IMG/VR virus record: IMGVR_UViG_3300044712_000182
Location: 1-60,011 of that record
Source: a virus
DNA: 60,011 nt
Strand: one strand, 5' to 3'
The notes beneath the pieces are model-generated. The model ran no database searches, was not told the DNA's origin, and worked only from the letters and a program-made list of their open reading frames with translations. Within the stretch, counting starts at the first letter, position 1. Every line of letters begins with the position of its first letter. Below are positions 683 through 48,976 of this stretch, in pieces. The position numbers and the translations under genes are program-made.

Positions 683-693
683 GTTATGCCTCC

Positions 694-1292: not shown

Positions 1293-1335
1293 AGTCTCTC
1301 CTCTTTCTGGCAAACTTTGCCAATCTCTAGTAACT

Positions 1336-1364
1336 ATTTTATCACGATGTAATACAAAGGTCAA
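1336..1364 (-). promoter_or_regulatory. Early promoter with TGTATTACA operator
   Basis: TTGACC, 17-nt spacer, TAAAAT on the minus strand. The palindrome TGTATTACA sits directly after the -35 box, as in five other promoters in the window. It overlaps the 3' end of the upstream HNH-like gene and drives the small genes to its left. Confidence 0.75.
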
Positions 1365-1684
1365 TACCCCATTCCCTGCCTAAGATTAGGGAACCGCTTG
1401 ACCTTCAAGGGGAGCGATTCATACCACCCTATCACGTCGTAGCCTCGCTCGATCTGCCGTCTTGCAAACTCCAGGGCGTGTTCCGTGGTGTCCAACTTGC
1501 CTGATTCATGGCAACACGTCCAGCCTACCAGCTCAATGTTTATGTCCGCGTCTAGAAAATGTTTATGCTTCTGCGTAGGCTCTATGCAGTGGTGACGGGT
1601 AGGCGGATTGTCAAATGAAAACGGCGCACCGCAGTTCTCACACGCATACCCACGTAGAGCAAGGAAGTGAGATACGGGGTTCAA
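1361..1684 (-). CDS. HNH-like zinc-binding protein
   Basis: 107 residues. CENCG near residue 16, RHHCIE near 30, then DADINIELVGWTCCHESGK resembling the histidine/asparagine/cysteine layout of HNH folds, and a C-terminal helix ending GWYESLPLKVKRFPNLRQ. Closely related to the copy-2 protein at 43582-43920. Starts by ATGA overlap with the methyltransferase. Catalytic residues are not clearly intact, so it may be a structural HNH-fold protein rather than a nuclease. Confidence 0.6.
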   Translation of the reverse strand: MNPVSHFLALRGYACENCGAPFSFDNPPTRHHCIEPTQKHKHFLDADINIELVGWTCCHESGKLDTTEHALEFARRQIERGYDVIGWYESLPLKVKRFPNLRQGMGY

Positions 1685-2685: not shown

Positions 2686-2688
2686 TGA

Positions 2689-4145: not shown

Positions 4146-4984
4146 TTATTCCCCTTCCTCAATTCCTCACGAAGTTTGTTTATCTCTTCCTGGGATTGCT
4201 GCTTGAAAGTGTCTTTGGATTTCACGGCGGGGATTTCGCCGGTGGCCGCCCATTCGAGTATCCAGAATGTATTAGACTTCTGGTAATTCTGGCCCTGCTT
4301 ATTCTTGCGCTTTATAGACTCTAGGTAGAACGGCCTCAGATGGTCGGCCATTTTTGCGCGGTCATTTATCTTGTGTTTCTCGGACAACATCTTTATTGTT
4401 CGCCTAACTTCGTTTACTCGTTCTGTCGGGTAGAATCCTGTCACTCTCAGAAAGGCGTCGTCACAGAATAGATCATCGGCGGGTTCGTATTGGTTGGGAG
4501 GATTTGATTCGTATTCGCCTGTCAATGGATTTATGGGAGGGATAGAAGCAGCGGATTCTACTTCTTCTCTACTCTTATCTGTTTCTGTTTCTGTTTCTTC
4601 TCTTCTCTCCGTTACCTTTTGTGACATATCCGTGACAGGTTCGTGACGGAACTCCTTTTTGTGTTTTATTTCTCGTGACAATCTTTGTCGTTCTGCTGGT
4701 TCAAGTGCCGCTTGACGTTCTGCAAACTTTCTGATAATCGTTTCGGTTCCATTTGTCACAAGATATTCGATTGACAACAACTCTTCAAAAACTGGTTTCC
4801 ACCATTCAACTGACCTGCGGGTATAAAATGACACATCTTCAATTGAAGGTATCTCGCCGTCCATGTCAACTTTTTTGGCAACTAGCATCAATTCAATCAT
4901 CCCTAATTTCGCCGTGTCAGATAAGCGGTGATACTTAGGGTCTTCAAGAATTTCAGTATACAATTTAAGCCAATACCCGGCCAT
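4142..4984 (-). CDS. Replication initiator / replisome organiser
   Basis: 280 residues. The N-terminal 100 residues look like a winged helix (WLKLYTEILEDPKYHRLSD...LGMIELMLVA...SIEYLVTNG), followed by a charged Glu/Thr-rich linker and a C-terminal domain ending KSNTFWILEWAATGEIPAVKSKDTFKQQ. The last 35 residues are shared with the copy-2 initiator (45328-46161), whose N-terminal domain is unrelated. Such N-terminal swaps usually reflect a change of origin specificity. Adjacent to the DnaC-like loader, as in phage initiator-loader pairs. Confidence 0.65.
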   Translation of the reverse strand: MAGYWLKLYTEILEDPKYHRLSDTAKLGMIELMLVAKKVDMDGEIPSIEDVSFYTRRSVEWWKPVFEELLSIEYLVTNGTETIIRKFAERQAALEPAERQRLSREIKHKKEFRHEPVTDMSQKVTERREETETETDKSREEVESAASIPPINPLTGEYESNPPNQYEPADDLFCDDAFLRVTGFYPTERVNEVRRTIKMLSEKHKINDRAKMADHLRPFYLESIKRKNKQGQNYQKSNTFWILEWAATGEIPAVKSKDTFKQQSQEEINKLREELRKGNK

Positions 4985-5285
4985 ATTTTACTCCTAGTAA
5001 TCTATAACCCTTTGATCTGTTACACTTAGCACAAGCCAAAACTAGATTTTCCTCAACCGTATCTCCCCCATAACAAACGGGAATGATGTGGTCTATCTCG
5101 AAAGGTATAACATCGAGACCGTTATAACTACCATGTTCTGTTTTAGTATTTACATTCTTTGGATTTTCTATTATACATGGTCTTCCATAACGCCTTATCG
5201 GCTGTCCAATTTTCCCACAATACTGGCAAGTGTATTTATCCCTTTCGTAAATTCTTTTTCTTAATTCAATTGGTATGTAGGCCAT
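4965..5285 (-). CDS. HNH homing endonuclease
   Basis: 106 residues from ATG at 5285, behind an AGGAG site. CQYCGK near residue 20, the HNH core EIDHIIPVCYGGDTVEENLVLACAKCN near 65-90. A free-standing HNH nuclease, likely a selfish element; absent from copy 2 at this place. It lies directly downstream of the structured leader at 5299-5392 and of an extended -10 promoter, so it has its own transcription unit. It overlaps the start of the initiator gene by 20 bp. Confidence 0.85.
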   Translation of the reverse strand: MAYIPIELRKRIYERDKYTCQYCGKIGQPIRRYGRPCIIENPKNVNTKTEHGSYNGLDVIPFEIDHIIPVCYGGDTVEENLVLACAKCNRSKGYRLLGVKYGRVLA

Positions 5286-5298
5286 AATTCCGCTCCTA

Positions 5299-5392
5299 GA
5301 TAACAATCAGCCGCTCTCGTCACTGATAACGTTTGCTTAGGACGTATGACGAAAAGCGGCTGGTTGTATGTTATCATTCCGTCCTAAGCAAA
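5299..5392 (-). ncRNA. Triple-interleaved structured leader (type II), copy 1
   Basis: Three pairings in a-b-c-a-b-c order: 5380-5392 with 5332-5344 (13 bp perfect, core GCTTAGGAC), 5370-5375 with 5325-5330 (GATAAC/GTTATC, alternative partner 5299-5304), and 5347-5362 with 5308-5322 (about 14 bp). They can form a pseudoknot or exclusive alternative folds. The 3' strand ends next to the ribosome site of the HNH gene. The same arrangement with different bases occurs at 46362-46454. Confidence 0.7.
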
Positions 5393-5395
5393 TTC

Positions 5396-5407
5396 ATTAT
5401 ACCACAA
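5396..5407 (-). promoter_or_regulatory. Extended -10 promoter
   Basis: TTGTGGTATAAT on the minus strand; the predicted start falls at the first base pairs of the structured leader. Same box as at 23812, 8344, 43581 and 46460. Confidence 0.7.
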
Positions 5408-5424
5408 CTCGATTTTCAAGCTAC

Positions 5425-6338: not shown

Positions 6339-6347
6339 ATTCTCTCC

Positions 6348-6473
6348 TCACTTCTCTAAGTATTCCTTGACCTCTTCCAGATGTTCATCCGGCTGTGTTT
6401 CTTCCTCGATGAACATCCGCTCAAACTGCCTGTCTAACTCGGCCTGTGCGCTGTCGTCTAATTCATCTGCCAT
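6348..6473 (-). CDS. Small acidic protein upstream of erf
   Basis: 41 residues, MADELDDSAQAELDRQFERM followed by a Glu-rich helix. Its stop is followed at once by the GGAGAG ribosome site of erf, and its start overlaps the end of the upstream gene. In copy 2 the 5' end has been lost (47667-47735). Function unknown; perhaps only translational coupling. Confidence 0.6.
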   Translation of the reverse strand: MADELDDSAQAELDRQFERMFIEEETQPDEHLEEVKEYLEK

Positions 6474-6753
6474 ACAACACTACCTTTTCGCGGGAGAGAA
6501 GGGCATAATGCTTATCAAGCGTAGGTCTTGTTTCGCAAGTACATTCATCGTCTTCGCAATCCCATGCAGGACAACCGTCGTAATGTCCTGCGACATTAGC
6601 CAATCGCTCTGTATCTTCAACCAGCTCTCCGACCAGTTTCTTTAGGCGGTGAATCTCACTGATAGCGGTTTCCATTTCATAATTTGAAATAGTCTTGCCA
6701 TTCACGAACTTTTGTTCTACGCTGTCCTCAAATTCCTGATTCCATTCTGTCAT
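6463..6753 (-). CDS. Small coiled-coil protein with cysteine cluster
   Basis: 96 residues; helix-rich N-terminus (MTEWNQEFEDSVEQKF), leucine-rich coiled coil (IHRLKKLVGELVEDTERL), then CPAWDCEDDECTC. The start and the KLVGELV segment recur in the early protein at 38918-39271, so the two are paralogs. Missing from copy 2 through a clean deletion (or inserted in copy 1). Function unknown. Confidence 0.65.
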   Translation of the reverse strand: MTEWNQEFEDSVEQKFVNGKTISNYEMETAISEIHRLKKLVGELVEDTERLANVAGHYDGCPAWDCEDDECTCETRPTLDKHYALLSREKVVLYGR

Positions 6754-6757
6754 TTTG

Positions 6758-7051
6758 TCACCTCTCCGAATTCAGGAGTTCTTGTGTCCATCGCTCCCTC
6801 ATCTCGCGCTCGTGTTGTTCGGCTTTCAATGCCCTGTTGAGCGCGGTGTCCACCTCCATGTTGACCGCAAGATGATCCTCTCGCAGGTCGATGGTCATGT
6901 CGTAATCCCGCCACGCTTGCTCAACTGCTAAGGCCGCATCTGTGACATAGCGCGGCGTCTGCTGACCTTTGAGAGTGTACCGACCAGGTTTCCAGTCGTG
7001 CGTGGTCGGTTGTTCTCGTGTGTAACTGCCTATCGCTAGTGCTACCATCAT
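6758..7051 (-). CDS. Conserved early protein, unknown
   Basis: 97 residues beginning MMVALAIGSYTREQPTTHDW, with a C-terminal helix rich in Arg and Glu. Near identical to 47777-48061 in copy 2 up to the last residues, where the deletion in copy 2 changes the end. No family recognised. Confidence 0.65.
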   Translation of the reverse strand: MMVALAIGSYTREQPTTHDWKPGRYTLKGQQTPRYVTDAALAVEQAWRDYDMTIDLREDHLAVNMEVDTALNRALKAEQHEREMRERWTQELLNSER

Positions 7052-7055
7052 AACC

Positions 7056-7268
7056 TCACTTGTCGTTTTCTGCTGCCCAGTCTACAACGCCGTCCTTGAT
7101 TGTACCGACGACTGGGATTGGTCTTTCGGCTAATACTTCCTGCCGATAAACTTCTTGGATACCAGCCTTGATGACATCCGATTGCTTGTGACCCTTTGAA
7201 ATCAGGTAATCAAGCATTGACCGTTCAAGATCGGTGGTGCGGAATGTTACGATGTTATTTTCTGCCAT
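7056..7268 (-). CDS. Ribbon-helix-helix (CopG/Arc-type) DNA-binding protein
   Basis: 70 residues. A predicted beta strand NIVTFRTT, helix LERSMLDYLISKG and helix KQSDVIKAGIQEVYRQE match the ribbon-helix-helix fold used by small phage repressors. The tail VVGTIKDGVVDWAAENDK is conserved in copy 2 (48314-48523). Being near the start of the early operon and the only clear small repressor candidate, it may recognise the TGTAWTACA operators; that link is inference. Confidence 0.75.
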   Translation of the reverse strand: MAENNIVTFRTTDLERSMLDYLISKGHKQSDVIKAGIQEVYRQEVLAERPIPVVGTIKDGVVDWAAENDK

Positions 7269-7279
7269 AAGTCTCTCCT

Positions 7280-7480
7280 CTAATCTAAAATGTCTTTAAA
7301 TTGAATTTCTAACCAACTGGCAACTTCGCTAAAATTTGTTGCGCGGAATGACCGCTCATAGGCCTCACTATACCTACCAGACTGAGCAACGCGCCTTGCA
7401 AAATCAAGATCGTTTTCGGCGTTTTCTTTTATTTTATTGATTGCCAATTTGATGCGTTCTTTTGCTATTTGTTTATCCAT
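7280..7480 (-). CDS. Small helical early protein
   Basis: 66 residues from ATG at 7480 (AGAGGAGAG ribosome site); MDKQIAKERIKLAINKIKEN followed by a second amphipathic helix. Only in copy 1. Function unknown. Confidence 0.6.
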   Translation of the reverse strand: MDKQIAKERIKLAINKIKENAENDLDFARRVAQSGRYSEAYERSFRATNFSEVASWLEIQFKDILD

Positions 7481-7532
7481 AAGTCTCTCCTCTATTAGAT
7501 TGCGCGTATCTCGTCGCGCCCCGGTTGGTGGA

Positions 7533-7685
7533 TTAGAATAAAAGATTGACCTTGCCGTATTTCCCGTTGCCCAAATCGGCGATTGCGTATCCGTGGCGAC
7601 CTCTGGTGCAATAAAGCCAGACAATTCCATTTTCGAGTTTTCGCTGTTTGACTTCGTATTTGTTGCCGTTGATTGTTAGTGTCAT
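7533..7685 (-). CDS. First gene of the copy-1 early operon
   Basis: 50-residue protein (MTLTINGNKYEVKQRKLENG ... GKYGKVNLLF), beta-rich in appearance. GAGGAG site 9 nt before the ATG and the best promoter in the window (7713-7741) just upstream. Absent from copy 2. Unknown function; its position suggests an early host-takeover or regulatory role. Confidence 0.6.
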   Translation of the reverse strand: MTLTINGNKYEVKQRKLENGIVWLYCTRGRHGYAIADLGNGKYGKVNLLF

Positions 7686-7712
7686 CTTGTCATCTCCTCA
7701 TTTCTTGAATTC

Positions 7713-7741
7713 ATTATACAGACATGTATTACAAATGTCAA
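7713..7741 (-). promoter_or_regulatory. Main early promoter with TGTAATACA operator
   Basis: TTGACA, 17-nt spacer, TATAAT, both boxes consensus, with the palindrome TGTAATACA two bases after the -35 box. Drives the early operon leftwards. Confidence 0.85.
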
Positions 7742-7743
7742 TA

Positions 7744-7795
7744 GGCAATATTGACCAATATCACCCCCTGGTGGACTTCAGAAACGCGCATAGTT
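7744..7795 (-). promoter_or_regulatory. Conserved block upstream of early promoter
   Basis: About 50 bp shared with 48589-48640 in copy 2 although the DNA beyond differs. Contains ATATTGGTCAATAT, a 6-bp inverted repeat in copy 1 (4 bp in copy 2), right behind the -35 box. An activator or repressor site, or part of an origin. The remaining 150 bp up to the terminator hold only two ACTTTACAATC direct repeats and no convincing gene. Confidence 0.4.
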
Positions 7796-7949
7796 TATCA
7801 TAGCGATTGATTGGCGCAGATAGAGAAAACGACGTAATATCATCAATTGAGTATATTTACCTTTAGAAAATTTACGGCGTTCTGGTGGCTTCTAGGGGCG
7901 ACCCTTGACTTTACAATCCGTGGTAATAACTTTACAATCATGCTAAGTT

Positions 7950-7977
7950 AAAGCAAAGACCGCCCCGAAGGACGGTC
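7950..7977 (-). terminator. Intrinsic terminator after small RNA A
   Basis: GACCGTCC, UUCG loop, GGGCGGTC (one G-U pair), then TTTGCTTT on the minus strand. Confidence 0.85.
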
Positions 7978-8337
7978 TCGCTTGTTGTGGACAGTTGTTT
8001 TATGGTTTTGGTCGCTAGGCGGCCAAACCAACCTTGACAAGAGGAGGATCGTGACCCACTGACAGGGCTACGGATTTTTTTGGGGGATGTCAGCCCCGTC
8101 CGTACTTTCCTCAAACACACAACTTAGTTGCTCCGGTAGGGATACGACCCCGTTGCCGTTGGTAAAGTCGCTTGCGACTTCGCCGTTTACCAGGCCTTCC
8201 GTGCCTTTGACACTCGGAGCAGTTCGGTTGGCATTAGCGGTCAGTCGAAACTTTAGGCATGTCCAACCATCGTGATACTTACTATGCAGCCAAGTTGCCT
8301 ACGCAAACGAACCGCTTGATGCAGCCCTCTCGACCAC
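7978..8337 (-). ncRNA. Structured small RNA A
   Basis: A gene-free transcript bounded by a promoter (8344-8372) and a terminator (7950-7977). Core 8129-8268: closing stem 8129-8135 with 8215-8221 around three hairpins (8139-8151; 8161-8191 nested; 8192-8205), a cloverleaf-like layout, preceded by a hairpin with stem 8226-8231/8263-8268. The same plan with compensatory changes occurs at 49003-49133 in copy 2 (for example GGG/CCC becomes TGAGG/CCTCA). The T-arm-like hairpin lacks tRNA loop consensus, so it is not called a tRNA. Function unknown. Confidence 0.6.
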
Positions 8338-8343
8338 GCTTTG

Positions 8344-8372
8344 ATTATACCACAAACAAAACCGCCCTACAA
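8344..8372 (-). promoter_or_regulatory. Promoter of small RNA A
   Basis: TTGTAG, 17-nt spacer, TATAAT with an extended TGTGG before the -10 box. The spacer overlaps the terminator of the lysis operon, so terminator and promoter are fused. Confidence 0.7.
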
Positions 8373-8382
8373 TGAGGGCGGT
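8354..8382 (-). terminator. Terminator of copy-1 late (lysis) operon
   Basis: ACCGCCCT/AGGGCGGT 8-bp stem followed by TTTGTTTG on the minus strand, 16 bp after the holin stop codon. Confidence 0.85.
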
Positions 8383-8398
8383 CTGTTGGTCATGTAGG

Positions 8399-8779
8399 TT
8401 ACTCGATAACTTCTTCCGCTTCTGGTACGCGATAGCGGTTGAACTCTTCCATAACGGCGGCTTCGATCAACACATCCAATTCATCTATGTCAATCGCAAG
8501 TCCCCATCCAGCAAGAGACTGTTGGGCGGCGTTGATAGCGTAATCCTTCTTGTCGAGAAGCGCGTCGGCAAGCCCTACCTGTTCGGCGGCTAACACGGCT
8601 GAAGAAACGGCCTTTTTGATGATGTCAAGCGTGTTGGAATCCAGCACGGCTTCGGCGGCGGCAATCTTGCTCTTCACCCACTTGATAACAAATCCTACGA
8701 TAACAGCCACGAGGGGCGGCAAGACTAACTGCAAAAACAGATTGAGAAAGGTAACTCCAAACTCTTTCAAGACTTCCAT
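8399..8779 (-). CDS. Phage holin, LLH type
   Basis: 126 residues. One N-terminal membrane segment (FLNLFLQLVLPPLVAVIVGFVIKW, about 10-34), then a soluble tail with the LLH pattern AVLAAEQVGLADALLDKKDYAI and DIDELDVLIEAAVMEEFN. It would form membrane lesions that release the GH25 lysin. Last gene before the late terminator. Ortholog 49209-49583. Confidence 0.8.
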   Translation of the reverse strand: MEVLKEFGVTFLNLFLQLVLPPLVAVIVGFVIKWVKSKIAAAEAVLDSNTLDIIKKAVSSAVLAAEQVGLADALLDKKDYAINAAQQSLAGWGLAIDIDELDVLIEAAVMEEFNRYRVPEAEEVIE

Positions 8780-8788
8780 ATATCCTCC

Positions 8789-9028
8789 TTAACTAAACTG
8801 ATAGGTTTCCAACATACCGTGCTTGTTGTAATATTGCTTCAATGCCACGGAAAGTTGGTCATTGTCTTTCTTCGCGACCATCCGCATATCCGGCTCGCCG
8901 AACAACTCATTGTACTTTGCCAGGATACGAAGCGCAACGTCTTTCGGCTTCTCCATTGGAACGCGGATGTCTGCTGGTTCTACCAACTGCAACGCGGCGT
9001 CGATGTCTGAATACACTCGTTTCTTCAT
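8789..9028 (-). CDS. Conserved protein next to holin
   Basis: 79 residues, MKKRVYSDIDAALQLVEPAD; DIRxPMEKPK and RILAKYNELFGEPDMR are conserved in copy 2 (49592-49828) while the C-terminal third has diverged. Soluble, unknown function. Confidence 0.6.
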   Translation of the reverse strand: MKKRVYSDIDAALQLVEPADIRVPMEKPKDVALRILAKYNELFGEPDMRMVAKKDNDQLSVALKQYYNKHGMLETYQFS

Positions 9029-9039
9029 AAGCCTCCTCT

Positions 9040-9312
9040 CTAAAATTGACGCGGCGGAGTATCAATATGCTCCATTGCGTTTACGCACATAGCCGCGATT
9101 TTCCTTACGATTGCCATTGCCTTTGGATTCGCAACGATCCTGTCTTCTCTTGATAGGATATGTTTTGCTTCAAGAAGATAATCCTCCATGTAGACAATCC
9201 ACTCCTCTGGTTTTGAGTGTCGCCATCCAGCCTCCGCGTTTCCTTGTGGCCATTTATTGTTTTGGTAATCGCGCTCACCATCTATCAACTTGTATACTTC
9301 GTTTCTCTCCAT
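9040..9312 (-). CDS. Conserved phage protein, possibly MazG-related
   Basis: 90 residues. ERDYQNNKW near 13, PEEWIVYMEDYLLEAKHIL, and IAAMCVNAMEHIDTPPRQF at the end recall a family of small phage proteins often placed near nucleotide pyrophosphohydrolases. Assignment is tentative. Absent from copy 2. Confidence 0.45.
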   Translation of the reverse strand: MERNEVYKLIDGERDYQNNKWPQGNAEAGWRHSKPEEWIVYMEDYLLEAKHILSREDRIVANPKAMAIVRKIAAMCVNAMEHIDTPPRQF

Positions 9313-9327
9313 ATTACCTCCTCTCTA

Positions 9328-10182
9328 CTAGATTATATCGCTAATGGCTGTAACCCTGATACGGTCATCCTGTAAATAGAATTTCAGCCATATACAACCG
9401 TTTGGTTTTGGAGCCATGCCACTTTCAACTTCAAACCCCTCAGATCCGTTCTGGTATCCGTTCTTGTATCCGGGGGTTCGGACGTGCCATTGTAAATCCT
9501 GGTAGATAACGCCTTTGTCTGATATGCGCTCCCTTGCGATAGGAACGGTATACTCCTCGTGATTGTGGCCGTTCCAGACAATCGTAGCATCAGGAAGGTA
9601 CACCGCCTGTCGGTTCGTCTGGATAACGCCGCGAGTCACAGGAGCCGACCCGCCACCAGCACCGTGGAAGTATTTTAGGTTCGCAGTATACCGCTTCGTT
9701 TTATTCCACGTAAAGTTGAATTTTACCCATCCGCCATATCCACCCACTGAGATATTTGACCCGCACTCTTGGTTGAGTTTATAAGCAAGTCTTTCTATCA
9801 AGTCTGTTGAGTGGTGGCGAAGTACAGACATTTCGTGATTGCCCTTCGCAATCATTACCATGTTCTTGGCGTACTTTTTGTATTTGTCAAAGAGTAGGTT
9901 GATTAGGGAATCAAAGTAGTTGTTTTCTTTCAACAACGGTAGAAGTTCGCGGTATGATGCTCTTGGGTCGCGCTTTCCCTGCATGGCGTCAAATAGATCA
10001 CCGCCTTTTAGGATGATGGCCTTCTTGTCAAGCGCCTCTTCCAGATGTTGCTTTTCTAATTTCGAGTTACAAAATGGACTATCGGAATGTTCATCAGATG
10101 ATAACATCACCCATTGTTCCCAGCCCGCCGCGATGTCGTCAAAACGTAAAGTTACAACATTGTCATAGGATGTTTTCTGCAA
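9328..10182 (-). CDS. Calcineurin-like metallophosphoesterase (type 1)
   Basis: 284 residues, TTG start behind GGAGGAG. Metal-binding motifs in order: SSDEHSD near 28, KGGDLFD near 59, AKGNHE near 112, YFHGAG near 168, NGHNHEE near 204. Hydrolyses phosphoesters with two metal ions; substrate unknown, perhaps nucleic acid. Sits between endolysin and holin genes. The equivalent copy-2 gene (49951-50982) is a different metallophosphoesterase behind the same start codon. Confidence 0.85.
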   Translation of the reverse strand: MQKTSYDNVVTLRFDDIAAGWEQWVMLSSDEHSDSPFCNSKLEKQHLEEALDKKAIILKGGDLFDAMQGKRDPRASYRELLPLLKENNYFDSLINLLFDKYKKYAKNMVMIAKGNHEMSVLRHHSTDLIERLAYKLNQECGSNISVGGYGGWVKFNFTWNKTKRYTANLKYFHGAGGGSAPVTRGVIQTNRQAVYLPDATIVWNGHNHEEYTVPIARERISDKGVIYQDLQWHVRTPGYKNGYQNGSEGFEVESGMAPKPNGCIWLKFYLQDDRIRVTAISDII

Positions 10183-10207
10183 TATCTCCTCCGTTCTCTA
10201 TGTAGTT

Positions 10208-10236
10208 ATTATTGCACATAACAAGAGATATTTCAA
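10208..10236 (-). promoter_or_regulatory. Promoter upstream of metallophosphoesterase
   Basis: TTGAAA, 17-nt spacer, AATAAT. The whole interval up to the TTG start codon is identical in copy 2 (51008-51036). Confidence 0.5.
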
Positions 10237-10238
10237 CC

Positions 10239-10520
10239 CTACTTGACGACGCCAAAGAATCCCATGATTGCGGCAACGGCAGAGACAATGACGGTGGTTA
10301 TACTGAATCCCTTTACCCGGTTGTCAATGTTGTCCACGCGCTCGTAATAGGTGATGTCCTTTTCATCCTTGCATTTCTTCCACTCCCTGACCTCTTTCAT
10401 AAAGTCGGCCAGGGTATCGGTATATTCTGCCTGCGACTCTTCCAGGTTGTCTATCTTTCCAGAAAGGTGCATTAGCCATTCTTTTGTTGATGTCGGGCTT
10501 AGGCTTGGGATGTCGTTCAT
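10239..10520 (-). CDS. XhlA-like membrane-associated lysis protein
   Basis: 93 residues: coiled-coil N-terminus (GKIDNLEESQAEYTDTLADFMKEVREW) and a single C-terminal membrane segment (GFSITTVIVSAVAAIMGFFGVV). This is the layout of XhlA/haemolysin-type proteins that act with holin and lysin. Near identical to 51039-51320, with almost no DNA difference over the 3' two thirds. Confidence 0.7.
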   Translation of the reverse strand: MNDIPSLSPTSTKEWLMHLSGKIDNLEESQAEYTDTLADFMKEVREWKKCKDEKDITYYERVDNIDNRVKGFSITTVIVSAVAAIMGFFGVVK

Positions 10521-10526
10521 AATGAC

Positions 10527-11267
10527 TCACTCCGTTGGGTATGTCTTGCTATGTCTAATGGGTTTTACAATAACGTCTGGTGTTTTTGTAGGCCATGCAA
10601 TCTTAGGTGGTTCGGGTACAACTAGCGGATTTATCAAGAGTAGATCAATCGGCTGGATGGCTTTGTCAAGGTCGATGCTCAGGCTTTCGGTTGTGCCATA
10701 TAATCTGCCATTTCCCTTATCTGTTAATTGTTGAATATACTCTTGCAACCACGGCCCCGTTTCTGGCCGTTCAAGTTTGTCATAGTTGGTAATCCACAAC
10801 GGACAATTCACAAAATTTCGGAAGTAAAACTTATACTTCTGCGTTTCGTTATCCCATTGCATGTGTTCCGCAATCGCGTTGTTAGTGTATATCATCGGCC
10901 ATAAGTTAGTCAGGCGCTTGTACTCTTGTACGAACTCCCATGCTCTGGCAACGGCCTTGTCAAAATACTGCCAGACGTGTTCTTCAATATCCAGACATCC
11001 TATCAGGTTACATGAATCACCGATGGTATCCAGATAGAATCTGCATTGCTCCGCGCCATCTTTGAGTGCGTCAAGAAAATGGTACGAACCGCGATAGATA
11101 AGCGGACACGACTCAATGTTTTCCTTGAAGCGCGGATCAACAAATAACTTATGGGCATCTGTGCAATCAGTTGCCTTCAGGATAGCGAATTGAACACCCT
11201 GATTGACGGCTTTCTGCCAGTCCATTTTGCCTTGCCACAAACTGATGTCTATTCCGTATGTTGGCAT
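10527..11267 (-). CDS. GH25 endolysin (N-acetylmuramidase)
   Basis: 246 residues from ATG at 11267 (AGGAAAAG site). GH25 motifs: YGIDISLWQGKMDWQ at 4-17 with the catalytic-site Asp, FAILKATD, GSYHFLDAL, and GCLDIEE near 105 with the second acidic pair. Cleaves peptidoglycan glycan strands. The last about 40 residues, PEPPKIAWPTKTPDVIVKP, form a Pro-rich tail rather than a known wall-binding repeat. Ortholog 51327-52043. Confidence 0.9.
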   Translation of the reverse strand: MPTYGIDISLWQGKMDWQKAVNQGVQFAILKATDCTDAHKLFVDPRFKENIESCPLIYRGSYHFLDALKDGAEQCRFYLDTIGDSCNLIGCLDIEEHVWQYFDKAVARAWEFVQEYKRLTNLWPMIYTNNAIAEHMQWDNETQKYKFYFRNFVNCPLWITNYDKLERPETGPWLQEYIQQLTDKGNGRLYGTTESLSIDLDKAIQPIDLLLINPLVVPEPPKIAWPTKTPDVIVKPIRHSKTYPTE

Positions 11268-11278
11268 GTCTTTTCCTG

Positions 11279-11989
11279 TCACGAGAACCAAACTACCTGA
11301 TTGCCGCCCACGCCGTATTCATTATTCGGAGGGGTAAAACTTGTTGTCCACCTTGCAACGCCCTTACTAAGTCTAAATTCATCCAGCCAGCCGTTCAAGT
11401 TGTTGCCCGTTGCGTATTGTCCTATGTTTACAGTACCCGTAAAGTTTGGAATGGGACTGTCGTCTAGCGCCGTTCCCCACGCTGAACCGTTCAGATAGAA
11501 CGCATATCCAGCCGTTCCATTCCTGACCACAGCCATATGATACCAAATTCCAGTACCAACCGCCATGCCTCCGGCCTTGTTGGAATATGCGGTAACAATA
11601 TTAGCGCCGCCAGTCCTTACCTGGAAATATAGATCATCAAGAGATGACGCATAATAAAGACCCCAAAATTCACTTGATGATTGATACTGTTCTACGATAC
11701 CCATGGCGGTAGCGTTGGGGTCTGCCGCGAATCTTACCCAAAAGTCAATAGTCCACTTGTTCGATGCAGAACCGTCGTCTAACCACCAATCAGCATGATC
11801 CGCTGTAGTGATGTAATCCCCACTACCATCGAACAAACCGCTGGCAACTCCTAATTTTCTTTGCGCGGTATCAAGTTGCGCGTTACCTTTTGCCGTCCAG
11901 ACTTTCGACGATTCGTCAGTAAAGACAGTCCCACCATCCGCGCCGTTGAAGTGTAATAGTGACTTGGTATAAGAATCATCTACTGCCAT
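11279..11989 (-). CDS. LamG/concanavalin-like virion protein
   Basis: 236 residues forming one LamG-type lectin-like domain: SLLHFNGADGGTVFTDES, GSGDYITTADHADWWL, KWTIDFWVRF, WYHMAVVRNGTAGYAFYLNG, NGWLDEFRLSKGVARW. Such domains at the tail tip bind glycans. Highly conserved with 52054-52764. Probably a receptor-binding or fibre-tip component. Confidence 0.75.
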   Translation of the reverse strand: MAVDDSYTKSLLHFNGADGGTVFTDESSKVWTAKGNAQLDTAQRKLGVASGLFDGSGDYITTADHADWWLDDGSASNKWTIDFWVRFAADPNATAMGIVEQYQSSSEFWGLYYASSLDDLYFQVRTGGANIVTAYSNKAGGMAVGTGIWYHMAVVRNGTAGYAFYLNGSAWGTALDDSPIPNFTGTVNIGQYATGNNLNGWLDEFRLSKGVARWTTSFTPPNNEYGVGGNQVVWFS

Positions 11990-12624
11990 TAACTCACCGC
12001 CGTCTTTTTACCGCTAACTGCGATTGATAGGTTGACGATAGTTCCCGCTCCTGTCACGTAGGGAATGAACCAGTCACCCTTCGAGAATGTTGTAGCCGTC
12101 CAGCCAGTAAATGCCGTCCCCTCGTATCTATTCGTTCCTGCTATTGCTGGTTTTGTTGCTGTGCCAACAATTGAATCCGCAGTACCAGGAGATGAACCGA
12201 GATTAGCATACGTCTGTTTGTAAATGTCAATCGTGCCGTTTCCATTCACCGTGCCAGAATACAGCCTCACCGCTTCAAGCGTGGCATTGAATCCAAACTC
12301 TACGCCGGGATACAATACCGCAGCCGTCGGGTTAGACACAATGTAGGTGAACGAGAAGTCGTCGTCAATCCATGAAACGCCCGCGTTGCTACTGGCATCA
12401 CAGACCAACTTCCTGCCGTCTGTGCTTACAGGGAATAGCGTGCCACCGCTTGCCGCTGTGCCGATTGCGATATTGCCCTTATCAGAGAATATCGCCAAAC
12501 CAACATTCTGCACGGTTGCTTTCTTTGTGATAGGTGCCGCGCCGGGATCGTCTACGATTACGAGAATATCATCATTCTCGATTGCGGTTAGTTCTGTTAA
12601 TGCTGTGATTTTACTGTCTGCCAT
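11989..12624 (-). CDS. Tail fibre/tip protein with N-terminal adaptor
   Basis: 211 residues; MADSKITALTELTAIENDDI at the start is the usual virion-attachment adaptor of fibre proteins, followed by a beta-rich domain. The protein appears identical in copy 2 (52764-53399) although the DNA differs at many synonymous positions. Overlaps the LamG gene start. Confidence 0.7.
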   Translation of the reverse strand: MADSKITALTELTAIENDDILVIVDDPGAAPITKKATVQNVGLAIFSDKGNIAIGTAASGGTLFPVSTDGRKLVCDASSNAGVSWIDDDFSFTYIVSNPTAAVLYPGVEFGFNATLEAVRLYSGTVNGNGTIDIYKQTYANLGSSPGTADSIVGTATKPAIAGTNRYEGTAFTGWTATTFSKGDWFIPYVTGAGTIVNLSIAVSGKKTAVS

Positions 12625-12634
12625 AATTTACCTC

Positions 12635-12663
12635 TTGACTTCTGTAATACGTTGTGCTAAGAT
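12635..12663 (+). promoter_or_regulatory. Plus-strand promoter with TGTAATACG operator
   Basis: TTGACT, 17-nt spacer, TAAGAT on the plus strand, with TGTAATAC after the -35 box. Drives the antisense-oriented gene at 12689. Confidence 0.75.
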
Positions 12664-12688
12664 AAAAGCATAGAAAAGGAGAGTTCAA

Positions 12689-12904
12689 ATGAAAAAGAGT
12701 TTTAGAATCCTATTGGCAACATTGGCTACCCTAGTTGTTTTTTATATTGTGCTTTCGTCGTCAAATTTCTTTTTCCGTGTTCCCGTTTGTAAAAATGGCG
12801 AATTGGCCGAAATAAGGGGAGAAAGCGCTACGCAGCAAGAAGTAAAATATGACGATAAAACAACTGTTTCCGTTATTACCTACACAATTTATGTCTGCCA
12901 TTAA
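12689..12904 (+). CDS. Small exported/membrane protein, opposite strand (moron)
   Basis: 71 residues; Lys-rich start then a hydrophobic segment (residues 6-29) that reads as a signal anchor, and a short outer domain with two cysteines (VPVCKNGELA, TIYVCH) that could form a disulphide. AAAGGAGAG site 7 nt before ATG and its own promoter. The only plus-strand gene of copy 1, between fibre genes; the copy-2 homolog at 53464-53679 keeps start, both cysteines and TYTIY but little else. A lysogenic-conversion or superinfection-exclusion role is possible, not shown. Confidence 0.75.
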   Translation: MKKSFRILLATLATLVVFYIVLSSSNFFFRVPVCKNGELAEIRGESATQQEVKYDDKTTVSVITYTIYVCH

Positions 12905-13476
12905 CTAGTCCTCATAATAAAGCAGAGCGCATAATATGGCGGTAGACTAGACGCACTTGCCGTGTTTCCTACCGAATGAGTATGAGAGCCAGCCGATCCA
13001 GTAGACCCCGAATATGTGTGGGTATGAGATGACGATGCCGCCGCATTAATTCCGCTAGCCGCCGTAGTTGATGCGCTTGGGCCGCTTGTTGTTCCACTAA
13101 ATGAATGTGTATGCGAACCGCCAGAACCAGTAGAACCAACAGAGTGAGAGTGCGTTGCAGAACCGCCAGTATCGCCAGGATTATAAGTATTCCCAGCACC
13201 TATCACAAATTTATCTTGTAGGTTCGGAGTAACAACTGTTCCAACTGTTCCACCATCACACAATGACCAGCCCGTTGGTATATCGCCTTCTGCACCAGAC
13301 CACATTGTAATTACGCCGATAGGAACATTGGTCGGACTGATAATCGTTCCGCCCGTTGCCTCTAATGCTGCTATGCGCGTTTCGTGGTCTTGCAGGTCTT
13401 GTACTAAAACATTCCAGTCGGCATCGGCTTTGATTCCGTATGCGACAGCCCTTTCTGTTGGAACTGTATAGGTCAT
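12901..13476 (-). CDS. Tail collar-type fibre with HxH motifs
   Basis: 191 residues. Central collar-domain signature PIGVITMWSG....PTGWSLCDGG, then Gly/Ser-rich sequence with repeated HTH or HSH pairs (about residues 107-175) and the end LPPYYALCFIMRT. HxH motifs coordinate metal in trimeric fibres such as T4 short tail fibre. Conserved in copy 2 (53676-54251) except for the stretch between the HxH pairs. Confidence 0.75.
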   Translation of the reverse strand: MTYTVPTERAVAYGIKADADWNVLVQDLQDHETRIAALEATGGTIISPTNVPIGVITMWSGAEGDIPTGWSLCDGGTVGTVVTPNLQDKFVIGAGNTYNPGDTGGSATHSHSVGSTGSGGSHTHSFSGTTSGPSASTTAASGINAAASSSHTHTYSGSTGSAGSHTHSVGNTASASSLPPYYALCFIMRTS

Positions 13477-14024
13477 TTTATCCTCATAATAAACTTAACC
13501 GCATTATAGGGCGGTAATCCTGTGTTTGCGTTTCCTGTATCTGGTATAGAATGGTCGTGAGAGCCTCCACTGGAGACGTTTGAATTTACATAATGGTTAT
13601 GAGACTGTGAAATCGCGGTTGAACCAAGTGCTTGGGTATTTGAAGAAGAAGCCGAAGAGGTCGTAAACGATGCAGAATGGTTATGGCTGCTAGATGTACT
13701 TGTGTCACCCATCTCGTGATTATGCGTATTCAACCCGCCCGTTGTTGCTGGTGTATATGTACTCCCCGCCCCAACGATAAAAACATCTCGCAGGTCTGGC
13801 GTTCCACCCATGCCATCGCATAGATGCCACTTGTCTTCCAGCGTTCCTGCGTTCCCCCAAAACATGAATATCATCCCAATCGTCACGTTGGCAACTGTGC
13901 CATTACCAGAGTACAGAGCGTTCAACCTTGTGTTATGGTCAACGATATTCTCAGGGAATTGGTTATACATATCCGCTGTGATAAACGTGCTGGTTTCTAG
14001 TTCGGCCTGTGCTGTATATGTCAT
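13473..14024 (-). CDS. Second tail collar-type fibre with HxH motifs
   Basis: 183 residues, a paralog of the preceding protein: IGMIFMFWGNAGTLEDKWHLCDGMGG, HNH/HDH pairs near 100-160, end LPPYNAVKFIMRIK. Ortholog 54248-54796 differs mostly between the HxH pairs. Overlaps its neighbours by four bases. Confidence 0.75.
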   Translation of the reverse strand: MTYTAQAELETSTFITADMYNQFPENIVDHNTRLNALYSGNGTVANVTIGMIFMFWGNAGTLEDKWHLCDGMGGTPDLRDVFIVGAGSTYTPATTGGLNTHNHEMGDTSTSSSHNHSASFTTSSASSSNTQALGSTAISQSHNHYVNSNVSSGGSHDHSIPDTGNANTGLPPYNAVKFIMRIK

Positions 14025-43071: not shown

Positions 43072-43099
43072 ATTATACTCATTTGTAATACAATGTCAA
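43072..43099 (-). promoter_or_regulatory. Early promoter with TGTATTACA operator
   Basis: TTGACA, 16-nt spacer, TATAAT; palindrome TGTATTACA one base after the -35 box. Confidence 0.8.
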
Positions 43100-43476
43100 T
43101 ACCCTAGATGAGGCAATTTCTTTCTCGCGTGTAGTTTCATATGGCAAGACCTACATAGCCAAATTATTTCAAACGGTTTTGAGTAATCCTCGTGATGGGC
43201 GTTCCCAAATTCATTTCCACAAATAGCGCACGGTTGCCTAATTAATTCGCCACGTCTAATCGCGTGGTTTACAATATTGCGAGCGAGTGGTTTTTCTGGG
43301 CACTTAGAATTGCGCTCTCGTTGTTTTTGAATACGCTCATCTTGATTATTGTAGTAATCTTCGGATTTCTCTTTATTTATTTTATCTCTATTTTTTTCGA
43401 CATACCGCGCGTGGGTATCCTTATATTGTTGTTTGTGATCCTGATAGTATTTTTGTAAATATTCTTTTCTATCCAT
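43096..43476 (-). CDS. HNH homing endonuclease
   Basis: 126 residues. Highly charged N-terminal DNA-binding region with KYYQDHKQQYKDTHARY, then CAICGNEFGNAHHEDYSKPFEIIWLCRSCHMKLH, a complete HNH core. With its leader and promoter it forms a unit of about 0.49 kb that copy 1 lacks at the matching point (near 1366). Confidence 0.85.
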   Translation of the reverse strand: MDRKEYLQKYYQDHKQQYKDTHARYVEKNRDKINKEKSEDYYNNQDERIQKQRERNSKCPEKPLARNIVNHAIRRGELIRQPCAICGNEFGNAHHEDYSKPFEIIWLCRSCHMKLHARKKLPHLGY

Positions 43477-43494
43477 TTTGTCCTCAAATATAAA

Positions 43495-43569
43495 CCACCC
43501 CTTCCTCGGTGTTCAGCCCGAAAAAGAGGTGGCGGTGTTACCTATATTTTAGCACTGCTGAACCAATGC
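43495..43569 (-). ncRNA. Kissing-hairpin leader (type I), first example
   Basis: Hairpin P1 43552-43569 (6-bp stem, loop exactly 6 nt, GTTCAG) and hairpin P2 43495-43532, whose loop holds CTGAAC at 43511-43516, complementary to the whole P1 loop. Between them is the conserved single strand TAAAATATAGGTAACACC. P2 ends 19 nt before the HNH start codon. A second example with compensated loop bases is at 48847-48919. Confidence 0.75.
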
Positions 43570-43580
43570 GTCGATAGTTA

Positions 43581-43592
43581 ATTATACCACAA
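43581..43592 (-). promoter_or_regulatory. Extended -10 promoter
   Basis: TTGTGGTATAAT on the minus strand, about 12 bp before the kissing-hairpin leader. Confidence 0.7.
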
Positions 43593-43920
43593 TTTCAATC
43601 CCCAATTCCTGCCTAAGATTAGGGAACCGCTTGACCTTCAACGGCAGCGACTCCACCCACCCTATCACGTCGTAGCCTCTCTCGATCTGTCGTCTCGCAA
43701 ACTCCAAGGCGTGTTCGGTGGTGTCCAGCTTGCCTGATTCATGGCAACATCGTTTTCCGACAATCTCAATATTGATGTCTGCATCCAAACACTGGTATCT
43801 TTTCTGGCGAGGTTCAATACAATGATGCCTTTCTGGCGGATTGTCAAATGAAAACGGCGCACCACAGTTCTCGCACGCATACCCACGTAGAGCAAGGAAG
43901 TAAGATACGGGGTTCATCAT
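43582..43920 (-). CDS. HNH-like zinc-binding protein
   Basis: 112 residues; counterpart of 1361-1684 with the same CENCG, RHHCIE and CCHESG features. Its 3' end carries the promoter of the inserted endonuclease unit. Confidence 0.6.
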   Translation of the reverse strand: MMNPVSYFLALRGYACENCGAPFSFDNPPERHHCIEPRQKRYQCLDADINIEIVGKRCCHESGKLDTTEHALEFARRQIERGYDVIGWVESLPLKVKRFPNLRQELGIEIVV

Positions 43921-45331: not shown

Positions 45332-46161
45332 TTGCTTTTCCTCAATTCCTCACGAAGTTTATTTATCTCTTCCTGGGATTGCTGCTTGAAAGTGTCTTTG
45401 GATTTCACGGCGGGGATTTCTCCGGTCATAGCCCAGTCTGTCAACCAAACGCAGTTGCTCTTGGAATAGAAAGACCCATCTGATCTCCGCCGTGTTTTCC
45501 AGGAATCATAGAAAGGTCGTAGGTAGTCAACTAATTCCTTGCGAGTGCGATATTTCTTTGAAAGAAGGTTTAGAGAATCTATGACCGCATCGGTTTGGCT
45601 TCCTGGAATACCAATGGATTGCGTTACGTCCGTAAAGACTTGGATAAAATACATCCCATCATTAGGCGAAGCAATTGGCGGTGGCTCTGCTTCTACTTTT
45701 GATTTATGATTTTTGATTTGTGATTTTTGACTATATGAAGGAGCATCAGTTTCTTCGGGGGGATTAAAACTTGGGGTATCACTTGGGGTATCACTTGGGG
45801 TATCACTTGGGGTATCACTTGGGGTATCACTTGGGGTATCACTTGGAACTTTGACGTTGTATTTTTTACCCGTATATTCTTTTGGATTAGTCCAATTATG
45901 CACGATTATTTTTATTCCGTGCTGCTTTGATTCGCAAGTAATGTATCCCTTCTCCTCTAGTTTTCTGCGCTGATCCCTCAAGGTTGCTAACGGCATTTCC
46001 AATTCTTCCGCCGCCCCACGGTCTAGCCAGTCGCTAATTATGCCCTCTTCCCAATTCGTTATATCGAGGATATACATAAAAAGCCAAATCAACTCGCCTA
46101 AAGCGAATCTATGTTTTGGCTCAAGTATTCCACGCTTTACTGTAATCCAGGTTCGCTTCAT
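45328..46161 (-). CDS. Replication initiator with SDTP repeat linker
   Basis: 277 residues from ATG at 46161 (coupled by ATGA). N-terminal winged-helix region KRGILEPKHRFALGELIWLFMYILD...WLDRGAAEELEMPLATLRDQRRKLEEKGYIT, a linker of tandem SDTP units, and the C-terminal domain shared with copy 1 (4142-4984). N-terminal domains of the two initiators are unrelated, suggesting different origins. Confidence 0.65.
   Translation of the reverse strand: MKRTWITVKRGILEPKHRFALGELIWLFMYILDITNWEEGIISDWLDRGAAEELEMPLATLRDQRRKLEEKGYITCESKQHGIKIIVHNWTNPKEYTGKKYNVKVPSDTPSDTPSDTPSDTPSDTPSDTPSFNPPEETDAPSYSQKSQIKNHKSKVEAEPPPIASPNDGMYFIQVFTDVTQSIGIPGSQTDAVIDSLNLLSKKYRTRKELVDYLRPFYDSWKTRRRSDGSFYSKSNCVWLTDWAMTGEIPAVKSKDTFKQQSQEEINKLREELRKSK
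45772..45845 (-). repeat. Tandem 12-bp coding repeat
   Basis: Six consecutive units of GGGGTATCACTT (plus strand) encode (SDTP)n in the initiator linker. Units are identical or nearly so, pointing to recent slippage; they might also serve as iterons bound by the initiator itself. Confidence 0.85.
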
Positions 46162-46346
46162 TTCTTTGCTCGCTCTAATATTTCTTCCATTGCGCTTATC
46201 AATTCTTTTAGTTGTTCTGGGTTGCAAGAAAATACGGCGGTTGATTCTTCTCTTCCGAGTACGCCGGATTCCAAGAAGATTAAACCGTCTTCGCAAGAAA
46301 TTTCAAAATAAGAACCATCCAAAACATACTCTATTCTTTTTTCCAT
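46158..46346 (-). CDS. Small protein behind type II leader
   Basis: 62 residues: MEKRIEYVLDGSYFEISCED, a beta-rich first half, then helix CNPEQLKELISAMEEILERAKK. Directly follows the leader at 46362-46454, in the place held by an HNH gene in copy 1. Unknown function. Confidence 0.6.
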   Translation of the reverse strand: MEKRIEYVLDGSYFEISCEDGLIFLESGVLGREESTAVFSCNPEQLKELISAMEEILERAKK

Positions 46347-46361
46347 TTTATCTCCTAGATA

Positions 46362-46454
46362 AATAAAGCCCCGCCTTCCGAGTTAGTGTGATTGCTTAGG
46401 TCACGCCTGGAAGAGCGGGGTTTTATTCACTAATTCATGAGCATGACCTAAGCA
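46362..46454 (-). ncRNA. Triple-interleaved structured leader (type II), copy 2
   Basis: Pairs 46441-46454 with 46393-46406 (core GCTTAGG), 46428-46435 with 46381-46388 (TTAGTG/CACTAA) and 46409-46427 with 46362-46379 (about 17 bp, GC-rich), in a-b-c-a-b-c order as at 5299-5392. The GCTTAGG core is kept while the other stems differ and still pair. The 3' strand abuts TATCTAGGAG, the ribosome site, also conserved with copy 1. Confidence 0.7.
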
Positions 46455-46459
46455 TATAC

Positions 46460-46471
46460 ATTATACCACAA
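46460..46471 (-). promoter_or_regulatory. Extended -10 promoter
   Basis: TTGTGGTATAAT variant (ATTGTGGTATAAT) just before the type II leader. Confidence 0.7.
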
Positions 46472-48559: not shown

Positions 48560-48588
48560 ATTTTATCACAAATGTATTACAATGTCAA
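48560..48588 (-). promoter_or_regulatory. Main early promoter of copy 2 with TGTAATACA
   Basis: TTGACA, 17-nt spacer, TAAAAT; palindrome TGTAATACA one base after the -35 box. The conserved block 48589-48640 lies behind it. Confidence 0.8.
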
Positions 48589-48769: not shown

Positions 48770-48829
48770 TTATAATCCGTCGTCAACAAGAGCCACAAAT
48801 CCTTGGGTTAATATTAATTCTTTTGTCAT
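48770..48829 (-). pseudogene. Remnant of an HNH/AP2 homing endonuclease
   Basis: A good ribosome site and ATG open a 19-codon frame MTKELILTQGFVALVDDGL, the typical beginning of phage HNH-AP2 endonucleases, which then meets a stop. The 180 bp beyond hold no further intact frame. It sits directly behind the kissing-hairpin leader at 48847-48919. Confidence 0.55.
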
Positions 48830-48846: not shown

Positions 48847-48919
48847 ACTACCCGCTATTGAGCGGTCAGACCCAATAACGAGTAGTGGTGTTACCTATTT
48901 TTAGCAAGCTGACCCTTGC
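48847..48919 (-). ncRNA. Kissing-hairpin leader (type I), second example
   Basis: P1 48904-48919 (GCAAG/CTTGC, 6-nt loop GGTCAG) and P2 48847-48886 (14-bp stem ACTACTCGTTATTG with two G-U pairs) whose loop has CTGACC at 48864-48869, complementary to the P1 loop. Linker CTAAAAATAGGTAACACC matches the leader at 43495-43569. Loop pair changed from GTTCAG/CTGAAC to GGTCAG/CTGACC, a compensatory change. Confidence 0.75.
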
Positions 48920-48932
48920 GTTTGATAGTCTT

Positions 48933-48941
48933 ATTATATCA
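48933..48941 (-). promoter_or_regulatory. Promoter of second kissing-hairpin leader
   Basis: Extended -10 TGATATAAT, overlapping the T-tract of the terminator after small RNA B. Confidence 0.6.
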
Positions 48942-48943
48942 TA

Positions 48944-48976
48944 AACAAAAGAGCGCCGTCTTATGACAGCGCCCTC
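48944..48976 (-). terminator. Terminator after small RNA B
   Basis: AGAGGGCGCTGTC/GACGGCGCTCT stem (two bulges), ATAA loop, then TTTGTTT on the minus strand. Confidence 0.8.

What the first reader, a model, noticed from the sequence alone, without database searches (positions are those of the whole stretch)
43100..43592. Mobile unit: promoter + structured leader + HNH nuclease
Copy 1 has no sequence between the early promoter and the HNH-like gene (near 1366), whereas copy 2 has about 0.49 kb comprising an HNH gene, its kissing-hairpin leader and its promoter. Three of four structured leaders in the window precede an HNH gene or stub. This looks like a homing endonuclease family that travels with its own structured RNA, outside introns or inteins. 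HEARO/IscB RNAs are a known RNA-HNH association, but these proteins are far smaller and lack IscB domains.
Basis: partly seen in the sequence, partly recalled or inferred. Interest (0 to 1): 0.9.

Follow-up and report, generated by a model that had tools for sequence, protein, structure and literature searches.

The report
Shared RNA leaders before phage nucleases
In a group of uncultured phages, selfish DNA-cutting genes of several unrelated kinds sit directly behind their own small promoter and an intricately folded RNA leader that looks like an on/off gate (a terminator whose loop pairs with an upstream hairpin), so the leader is a shared expression module rather than an RNA partner private to the HNH nuclease.

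Summary
Window 43592-43100 (- strand) carries an extended -10 promoter, a two-hairpin leader with complementary loops, and a 126-aa HNH gene (phrog_2340, E=5e-25; relatives include I-KsaII). The sister copy at 1361 lacks it. Left flank homology is clean. The right flank is anchored only by ~40 bp of early promoter, and the unit is bracketed by an imperfect ~15-bp repeat. The leader lies inside the insert. The four window leaders are two classes. Class A (43.5k, 48.9k) was found nowhere else. Class B (5.4k, 46.4k) recurs: I found 25 copies in IMG/VR contigs with a -10 box at +1, then P1-X1-X2-P1'-X1'-X2', ending just before the gene start. Of these, 11 precede Pfam-supported mobile-type endonucleases of four folds (HNH, LAGLIDADG, GIY-YIG, TnpB), one an HNH-like gene and one an HNH remnant; the rest precede other genes. 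Free-standing relatives of this HNH lack room for a leader. So the leader is not an HNH-specific RNA. In both classes the last hairpin looks like an intrinsic terminator between promoter and start codon. My best model is a promoter-plus-attenuator cassette used by mobile nucleases and other accessory genes. No Rfam family matches. Function is inferred.

The parts
43589..43603 (-). left flank repeat GGGG-ATTGAAATTGT; last sequence shared with the empty site of copy 1
   Evidence: three-way alignment with copy 1 (1375-1350) and the right flank
43581..43589 (-). extended -10 promoter TGGTATAAT (no clear -35)
   Evidence: TTRTGRTATAAT-type boxes 10 in the window against 1.3 expected
43552..43569 (-). 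leader hairpin 1 (GCAUUG-GUUCAG-CAGUGC), loop X1 = GUUCAG
   Evidence: fold; structural scan
43534..43551 (-). conserved linker TAAAATATAGGTAACACC (identical in the second copy apart from one T)
   Evidence: exact motif not found elsewhere in a real leader
43494..43533 (-). leader hairpin 2, 16 bp, terminator-like, loop contains X1' = CUGAAC (43516-43511)
   Evidence: terminator-like call with T-rich tail; fold
43486..43493 (-). U-rich tail TTATATTT after hairpin 2
43481..43485 (-). Shine-Dalgarno GAGGA, 4 nt before the ATG; not sequestered in the predicted fold
43096..43476 (-). HNH-type endonuclease, 126 aa (CAIC...HHEDY...CRSCH)
   Evidence: phrog_2340 E=5e-25; relatives in 485 phage records incl. 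I-KsaII
43090..43104 (-). right flank repeat GGGTATTGACATTGT; holds the HNH stop codon (43098-43096) and the -35 of the next early promoter
43072..43099 (-). early promoter TTGACA...TATAAT downstream of the unit (repeated element; similar copies near 1366, 7743 and 48588)
1348..1375 (-). empty site in copy 1: end of the HNH-like gene running straight into the early promoter
48847..48944 (-). second copy of leader class A (promoter, hairpin 1 loop GGUCAG, hairpin 2 48886-48847, terminator-like with T tail)
48770..48829 (-). 19-codon ORF MTKELILTQGFVALVDDGL* behind it; possible HNH stub, unproven
   Evidence: no match
5303..5401 (-). leader class B, copy 1 (TATAAT, P1 at 5392, X1, X2, P1', X1', X2')
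4965..5285 (-). HNH endonuclease (PF01844) behind the class-B leader
46358..46465 (-). leader class B, copy 2
46158..46346 (-). 62-aa ORF of unknown function behind the class-B leader

Best explanation
The 0.49-kb segment is a free-standing mobile HNH endonuclease cassette: its own extended -10 promoter, a ~90-nt structured leader, and the HNH gene. It came in (or was exchanged) as one piece between an HNH-like gene and an early promoter, reusing GGGTATTGA(C) as its own stop codon and the next promoter's -35. The leader is most likely an attenuator. A short 5' hairpin forms first; the last element before the Shine-Dalgarno is a terminator-type hairpin (GC-rich stem plus U-rich tail) whose loop carries the complement of the first hairpin's loop. 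Pairing between the loops would change how often the terminator forms, and so how much nuclease mRNA is made. The same design, in an interleaved form (class B), stands before mobile nucleases of four different folds and before some other accessory genes in related and unrelated phages. The leader is therefore a shared, exchangeable expression module, not an RNA cofactor of HNH. Shown by sequence: the parts, their order, the presence/absence, the class-B recurrence and the association with nucleases. Inferred: mobility of the cassette, termination, and the regulatory role of the loop pairing.
For: Presence/absence including the leader; leader and gene replaced together at the ssb locus, where only 25 nt of promoter and P1 remain alike between 76-98% flanks. 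Both class-A leaders have complementary loops with a two-sided change; 2 real against 0 shuffled hits in 448 kb. Their hairpin 2 is called terminator-like with a T tail. Class B: 25 copies; structural scan 22 real hits against 3 shuffled; own X2 pairing beats every swapped partner in 19 of 22 members; a held-out member was recovered by the covariance model at E=2e-8; 20 of 25 X2 arms end in or are followed by TTT or longer. Nuclease association: 11 Pfam-supported of 25 (P=5e-11 at a 3% and 1e-5 at a 10% assumed background); a second scan with an unrelated P1 sequence gave 4 nucleases in 7 new sites; 6 of 7 PF01844/PF13392 genes in these contigs lie behind a leader. Leader kept while the gene decays or changes: G004 against G005.
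Against: No expression, termination or mobility data. The right boundary is soft. Class A has only two members, both in one phage. X1 pairing in class B is only moderately above swapped controls (12 of 22 best), and X1 is geometrically hard to reconcile with full-length P1 and X2 at once. Five of 25 class-B leaders lack a T run. About half of the class-B leaders precede genes that are not recognisable nucleases. Contigs were chosen because they carry a leader. The 3-10% background frequency and ~480 genes are my assumptions.
Confidence: 0.55

Rival explanations
1. HNH-specific RNA partner: the leader RNA is bound or used by the HNH protein (guide, cofactor or autoregulator), as in HEARO/IscB, and the pair moves together.
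For: The leader lies inside the insert; two class-A copies, one before an HNH gene and one before a possible HNH stub.
Against: Class-B leaders precede LAGLIDADG, GIY-YIG, TnpB and non-nuclease genes as well. Free-standing relatives of this HNH have no room for a leader. No guide-like conserved segment; helix sequences change freely. No Rfam match.
Confidence: 0.07
2. Recombination cassette (PeSL/moron type): promoter-plus-terminator leaders are landing and shuffling points for accessory genes; RNA structure matters only as a terminator that insulates neighbours.
For: Leaders stand before varied accessory genes; several per phage; the gene behind a conserved leader changes (G004/G005); the insert is flanked by promoter-derived repeats. 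PeSL promoter/stem-loop modules are described as mediating gene shuffling in T4-like phages (PMC4503421, citing Arbiol 2010 and Comeau 2014).
Against: The terminator-like hairpin lies between promoter and gene, not behind the gene. A pure insulator would not need the loop-loop/pseudoknot pairing seen in nearly every copy.
Confidence: 0.22
3. Translation or mRNA-stability element: the knotted 5' leader protects the mRNA 5' end or sets ribosome access at the adjacent Shine-Dalgarno, as hairpins do for T4 homing endonucleases.
For: RNA starts at P1/hairpin 1 (near-constant -10 spacing) and ends close to the SD in most copies. T4 endonucleases I-TevI, segB, mobE and seg43(25) have RNA hairpins at or next to the RBS (PMC2988022).
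Against: The SD is left open in the predicted class-A folds; U tails after the hairpin argue for transcription termination.
Confidence: 0.14

Closest known systems
Free-standing HNH/GIY-YIG homing endonuclease genes of T4-like phages (mob, seg; I-TevI family) with regulatory RNA hairpins (PMC2988022)
   Same: Intergenic mobile endonuclease genes, some with their own promoter and an RNA hairpin at the start of the gene that limits expression.
   Different: There the hairpin mostly sequesters the RBS; each is a simple stem-loop found for single genes. Here a two-hairpin/pseudoknot leader of recurring architecture starts at +1, leaves the SD open and serves nucleases of four folds.
PeSL promoter/stem-loop cassettes of T4-like phages (Arbiol 2010, Comeau 2014, known here through PMC4503421)
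   Same: A promoter joined to a terminator-type stem-loop, many per genome, next to shuffled accessory genes.
   Different: Here the order is promoter, leader with terminator-like hairpin, gene; the leader has a conserved loop-pairing architecture; it is strongly linked to mobile nucleases. The primary PeSL papers could not be read here.
HEARO/IscB and IStron/TnpB RNA-nuclease pairs
   Same: Structured RNA beside an HNH or RuvC mobile nuclease; one leader here precedes a full-length TnpB gene (L122).
   Different: Proteins lack IscB domains; the RNA is 5' of the gene with its own promoter, no conserved guide end, and the nuclease fold varies.
I-KsaII and other phrog_2340-type HNH endonucleases (Staphylococcus phage A5W polA intron)
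   Same: Homologous HNH protein (about 41-43% identity over 79%).
   Different: I-KsaII is annotated as intron-encoded; the window copy is intergenic with a promoter-leader.
DUF3800-type cis-regulatory RNAs in Rfam (RF02915 DUF3800-VI)
   Same: A copy with a similar promoter lies in the same window (8336-8287) and in the sister phage.
   Different: Unrelated sequence and structure; neither leader class matches any Rfam family.

Membership tests
Free-standing homing endonuclease gene | homing-type nuclease domain | tested here: met
   phrog_2340 E=5e-25, homologous to I-KsaII; Pfam gives no HNH hit above cut-off
Free-standing homing endonuclease gene | not inside an intron or intein | tested here: met
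   intergenic; neighbouring ORFs intact; no intron in the Rfam scan
Free-standing homing endonuclease gene | occupied and empty alleles in related phages | tested here: met
   right boundary soft
Free-standing homing endonuclease gene | cleavage of the empty allele and biased inheritance | not testable with these tools
   needs enzyme assay and mixed infection
HEARO/IscB (OMEGA) RNA-guided HNH | IscB architecture (RuvC-like domains, bridge helix, PLMP) | tested here: not met
   126-aa protein, no such domain
HEARO/IscB (OMEGA) RNA-guided HNH | HEARO RNA (Rfam) | tested here: not met
   no Rfam hit at the leaders
Intrinsic-terminator attenuator | GC-rich hairpin plus U tract between promoter and start codon | tested here: met
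   (class A); 20 of 25 class B with TTT or longer
Intrinsic-terminator attenuator | competing or regulating upstream structure | tested here: inconclusive
   loop pairing X1/X1' present in most copies; effect on termination not tested
PeSL cassette | conserved early promoter followed by stem-loop, repeated in hyperplastic regions | tested here: inconclusive
   several copies per phage, but structure and order differ; primary papers not held
Moron | single gene with its own promoter and terminator behind it | tested here: inconclusive
   own promoter yes; terminator is before the gene; none sought behind it

The most novel reading that the evidence does not exclude
The interleaved leader (P1-X1-X2-P1'-X1'-X2') is a new class of regulatory or catalytic RNA that is itself the mobile, conserved unit, colonised repeatedly by HNH, LAGLIDADG, GIY-YIG and TnpB nucleases much as group I introns are, with an RNA activity of its own (switching, processing or dimerising) that lets the nuclease genes settle harmlessly.
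Probability: 0.15. Interest if true: 0.9.

Novelty: new variant of a known kind. Interest (0 to 1): 0.72.

Why it matters
Homing endonucleases are known to live inside introns and inteins or as bare genes. A small non-splicing RNA module that recurs in front of HNH, LAGLIDADG, GIY-YIG and TnpB genes would be a third kind of home for them, would suggest how such costly genes are kept quiet, and gives a structural signature for finding more of them. The interleaved three-helix order is unusual for RNA and raises a directly testable folding question. The covariation can be checked in any large phage set.

Tried and rejected
Class-A core motif in IMG/VR and in 85,000 genomes: the 2 and 21 hits were all chance. 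Direct relatives of the HNH in IMG/VR: five distant hits, none with a recognisable leader. Kissing-hairpin scan of about 1 Mb of other loci: one weak hit that looks like an ordinary hairpin. Leader-B covariance model in 240 genomes of one phylum: nothing; host remains unknown. One search hits L071, L072 and L074 (no P1 extension, no X2) and many one search hits rejected as chance or coding. Rfam: no family for either class; the sR36 match at 2649-2583 is chance. The '48.9k HNH stub' could not be confirmed. Group I intron, HDV-like and pistol-like ribozyme folds considered from memory and dropped for lack of matching order or motifs. TnpB-type guide reading of the leader dropped because the leader is 5' of the gene and varies freely. 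No structure prediction was run.

Full report
What is there. On the minus strand, 43592-43096 reads: TTGTGGTATAAT (extended -10), ~12 nt, hairpin 1 (GCAUUG-GUUCAG-CAGUGC), an A-rich linker ending in TAGGTAACACC, hairpin 2 (16 bp, loop GCUGAACA), TTATATTT, GAGGA, and an ATG opening a 126-aa ORF. The ORF matches phrog_2340 (endonuclease, E=5e-25) and has relatives in 485 GenBank phage records, among them I-KsaII in the polA gene of Staphylococcus phage A5W, annotated as intron-encoded. Pfam alone does not recognise it. The loops of the two hairpins are complementary over six bases. In the second copy at 48944-48829 the loops are GGUCAG and CUGACC, so one pair changed on both sides while pairing was kept; overall identity is 72%. 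Both leaders fold far better than shuffled sequence (z -4.9 and -4.2). A scan for promoter plus kissing hairpins over 448 kb of phage sequence found these two and no others, and none in shuffled sequence.

Is it an insertion? Copy 1 runs from the HNH-like gene straight into the early promoter (GGAATGGGG-TATTGACC). Copy 2 has the cassette between GGAATTGGGG-ATTGAAATTGT and GGG-TATTGACATTGT. Both flanks of the cassette therefore carry a version of the same ~15 bp, and the HNH stop codon (TGA, 43098-43096) overlaps the -35 of the early promoter exactly as the neighbouring gene's stop does in copy 1. The left boundary is clean. The right one is anchored by the early promoter only; that element is repeated in these phages, and copy 2 carries two more genes before homology resumes at 42507. 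The cassette therefore includes the leader, but the full event may have been larger. The two copies belong to two related phages: IMG/VR contig 3300042876_000083 is identical to window 1-13522, matches window 1-26022 at 97-100%, and matches window 25.8-41 kb at roughly 90% over its long stretches.

The other leaders. Those at 5.4 kb and 46.4 kb have a different build: a 5' strand P1, then X1 and X2, then P1', X1', X2' in the same order. A pattern scan for one P1 sequence found the same build in unrelated IMG/VR contigs. A covariance model recovered the one member left out of it (E=2e-8) and further copies with other P1 sequences. A structural scan of 389 kb gave 22 hits, 17 of them strong, against 3 in shuffled sequence. 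A second scan with an unrelated P1 gave further new sites. In the 25 copies tabulated a -10 box precedes P1 at nearly constant spacing, although the two P1 scans that brought most of them in did not ask for it. X2 is 12-26 bp in 24 of 25 (9 bp in the other), and own X2 pairing beats all swapped partners in 19 of 22. X1 is 5-10 bp in 23 of 25 and sits between P1' and X2', but its excess over swapped controls is moderate (12 of 22).

What lies behind the leaders. Eleven of 25 class-B leaders are followed by Pfam-supported mobile-type nucleases: HNH (W 5.4k, L040/L056, L063, G010, L130), HNH_3 (L037, G005), HNH_repeat (L052), LAGLIDADG (L128), GIY-YIG (T5orf172/MUG113, L126) and a full-length TnpB (L122). 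One more (L124) looks HNH-like but no HMM confirms it. One leader (G004) precedes an HNH remnant whose intact homologue stands behind the homologous leader in G005, with 514 bp against 50 bp between the same flanks. At another site the leader is 89% identical in G004 and G005, but only G004 has the nuclease. The remaining leaders precede DUF5131, a Dam methylase, a helicase, a zinc-finger protein, small unknown ORFs or nothing clear. Looked at from the nucleases, 6 of the 7 distinct PF01844/PF13392 genes in the eleven records sit directly behind a leader. Against assumed backgrounds of 3% and 10% nuclease genes, 11 of 25 has P=5e-11 and 1e-5.

The RNA is not private to HNH: the same leader class serves four nuclease folds and other genes. 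Free-standing relatives of the window HNH in Vibrio phages K366 and D96a and Escherichia phage Sortsne have only 66, 83 and 47 nt between them and the preceding gene. The leader does travel with the gene at the one site where presence and absence can be compared, and at the ssb locus leader and gene differ together between phages whose flanks are 76-98% alike, sharing only 25 nt of promoter and P1.

How it probably works. In both classes the last helix before the Shine-Dalgarno is terminator-like: both class-A hairpins were called with U-rich tails, and 20 of 25 class-B X2 arms end in or are followed by three or more T. In both classes the loop closed by that helix contains X1', the complement of X1 in the loop of the 5' hairpin. 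By position and order of synthesis this is an attenuator: hairpin 1/P1 forms first, X1 meets X1' before the terminator arm is complete, and the outcome decides whether RNA polymerase reads into the nuclease gene. Most leaders have their own X1/X1' sequence, so regulation would be in cis. In class B the gap from P1' to X1' is usually 1-7 nt while P1 is 10-18 bp, so X1 cannot easily coexist with full P1; alternative folds are likely. This step is inference. Rivals are translation or stability control, as for T4 endonuclease hairpins that act on the RBS (PMC2988022), and a PeSL-like recombination cassette (PMC4503421).

Novelty. Neither class matches Rfam 15. Full-text searches found no description of such leaders before mobile endonucleases, but the library holds only openly licensed papers; the main RNA-motif survey I looked for and the PeSL papers are not in it. 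I rate it a new variant of known kinds (regulated free-standing endonuclease genes; promoter-terminator cassettes), with an unusual RNA architecture. Association and architecture are well supported, mobility moderately, mechanism only by inference.

Noticed in passing
8336-7950 (-) and 49157-49000 (-): Non-coding, apparently structured stretch behind a promoter and before a terminator-like hairpin; copy 1 starts with a DUF3800-VI RNA (RF02915, 50 bits) but no DUF3800 gene is next to it. A second DUF3800-VI-like copy lies in the sister phage (L114:10025-10095).
   Followed up: partly
window 1-60011: The record joins two related phages: contig IMGVR_UViG_3300042876_000083 is identical to window 1-13522 and 97-100% alike to 26022, while 41-60 kb is a second copy at about 86%. 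Likely an assembly join or a concatemer of two strains.
   Followed up: partly
L122:3395 (-) onwards: A full-length TnpB gene (OrfB_IS605, PF01385) stands directly behind a class-B leader with its own promoter.
   Followed up: partly
L100:251 (+), L109:13963 (+): Class-B leaders in front of a DUF5131 gene and a gene with a Dam methylase domain: the leader also serves accessory genes that are not nucleases.
   Followed up: no
1348-1366, 7725-7743, 43084-43101, 48573-48588 (-): A repeated early promoter TATTGAC(A)TTTGTAATACA...TATAAT, a likely substrate for recombination between loci.
   Followed up: partly
1361-1684 and 43582-43920 (-): The neighbouring 107/112-aa gene has a CxxC...HHC...CCH pattern and looks HNH-like, but no Pfam or PHROG model matches; the insertion replaces its last residues.
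   Followed up: partly
23822-23700 (-): Another TTGTGGTATAAT promoter with a leader of about 120 nt in front of a 165-aa ORF; not analysed.
   Followed up: no
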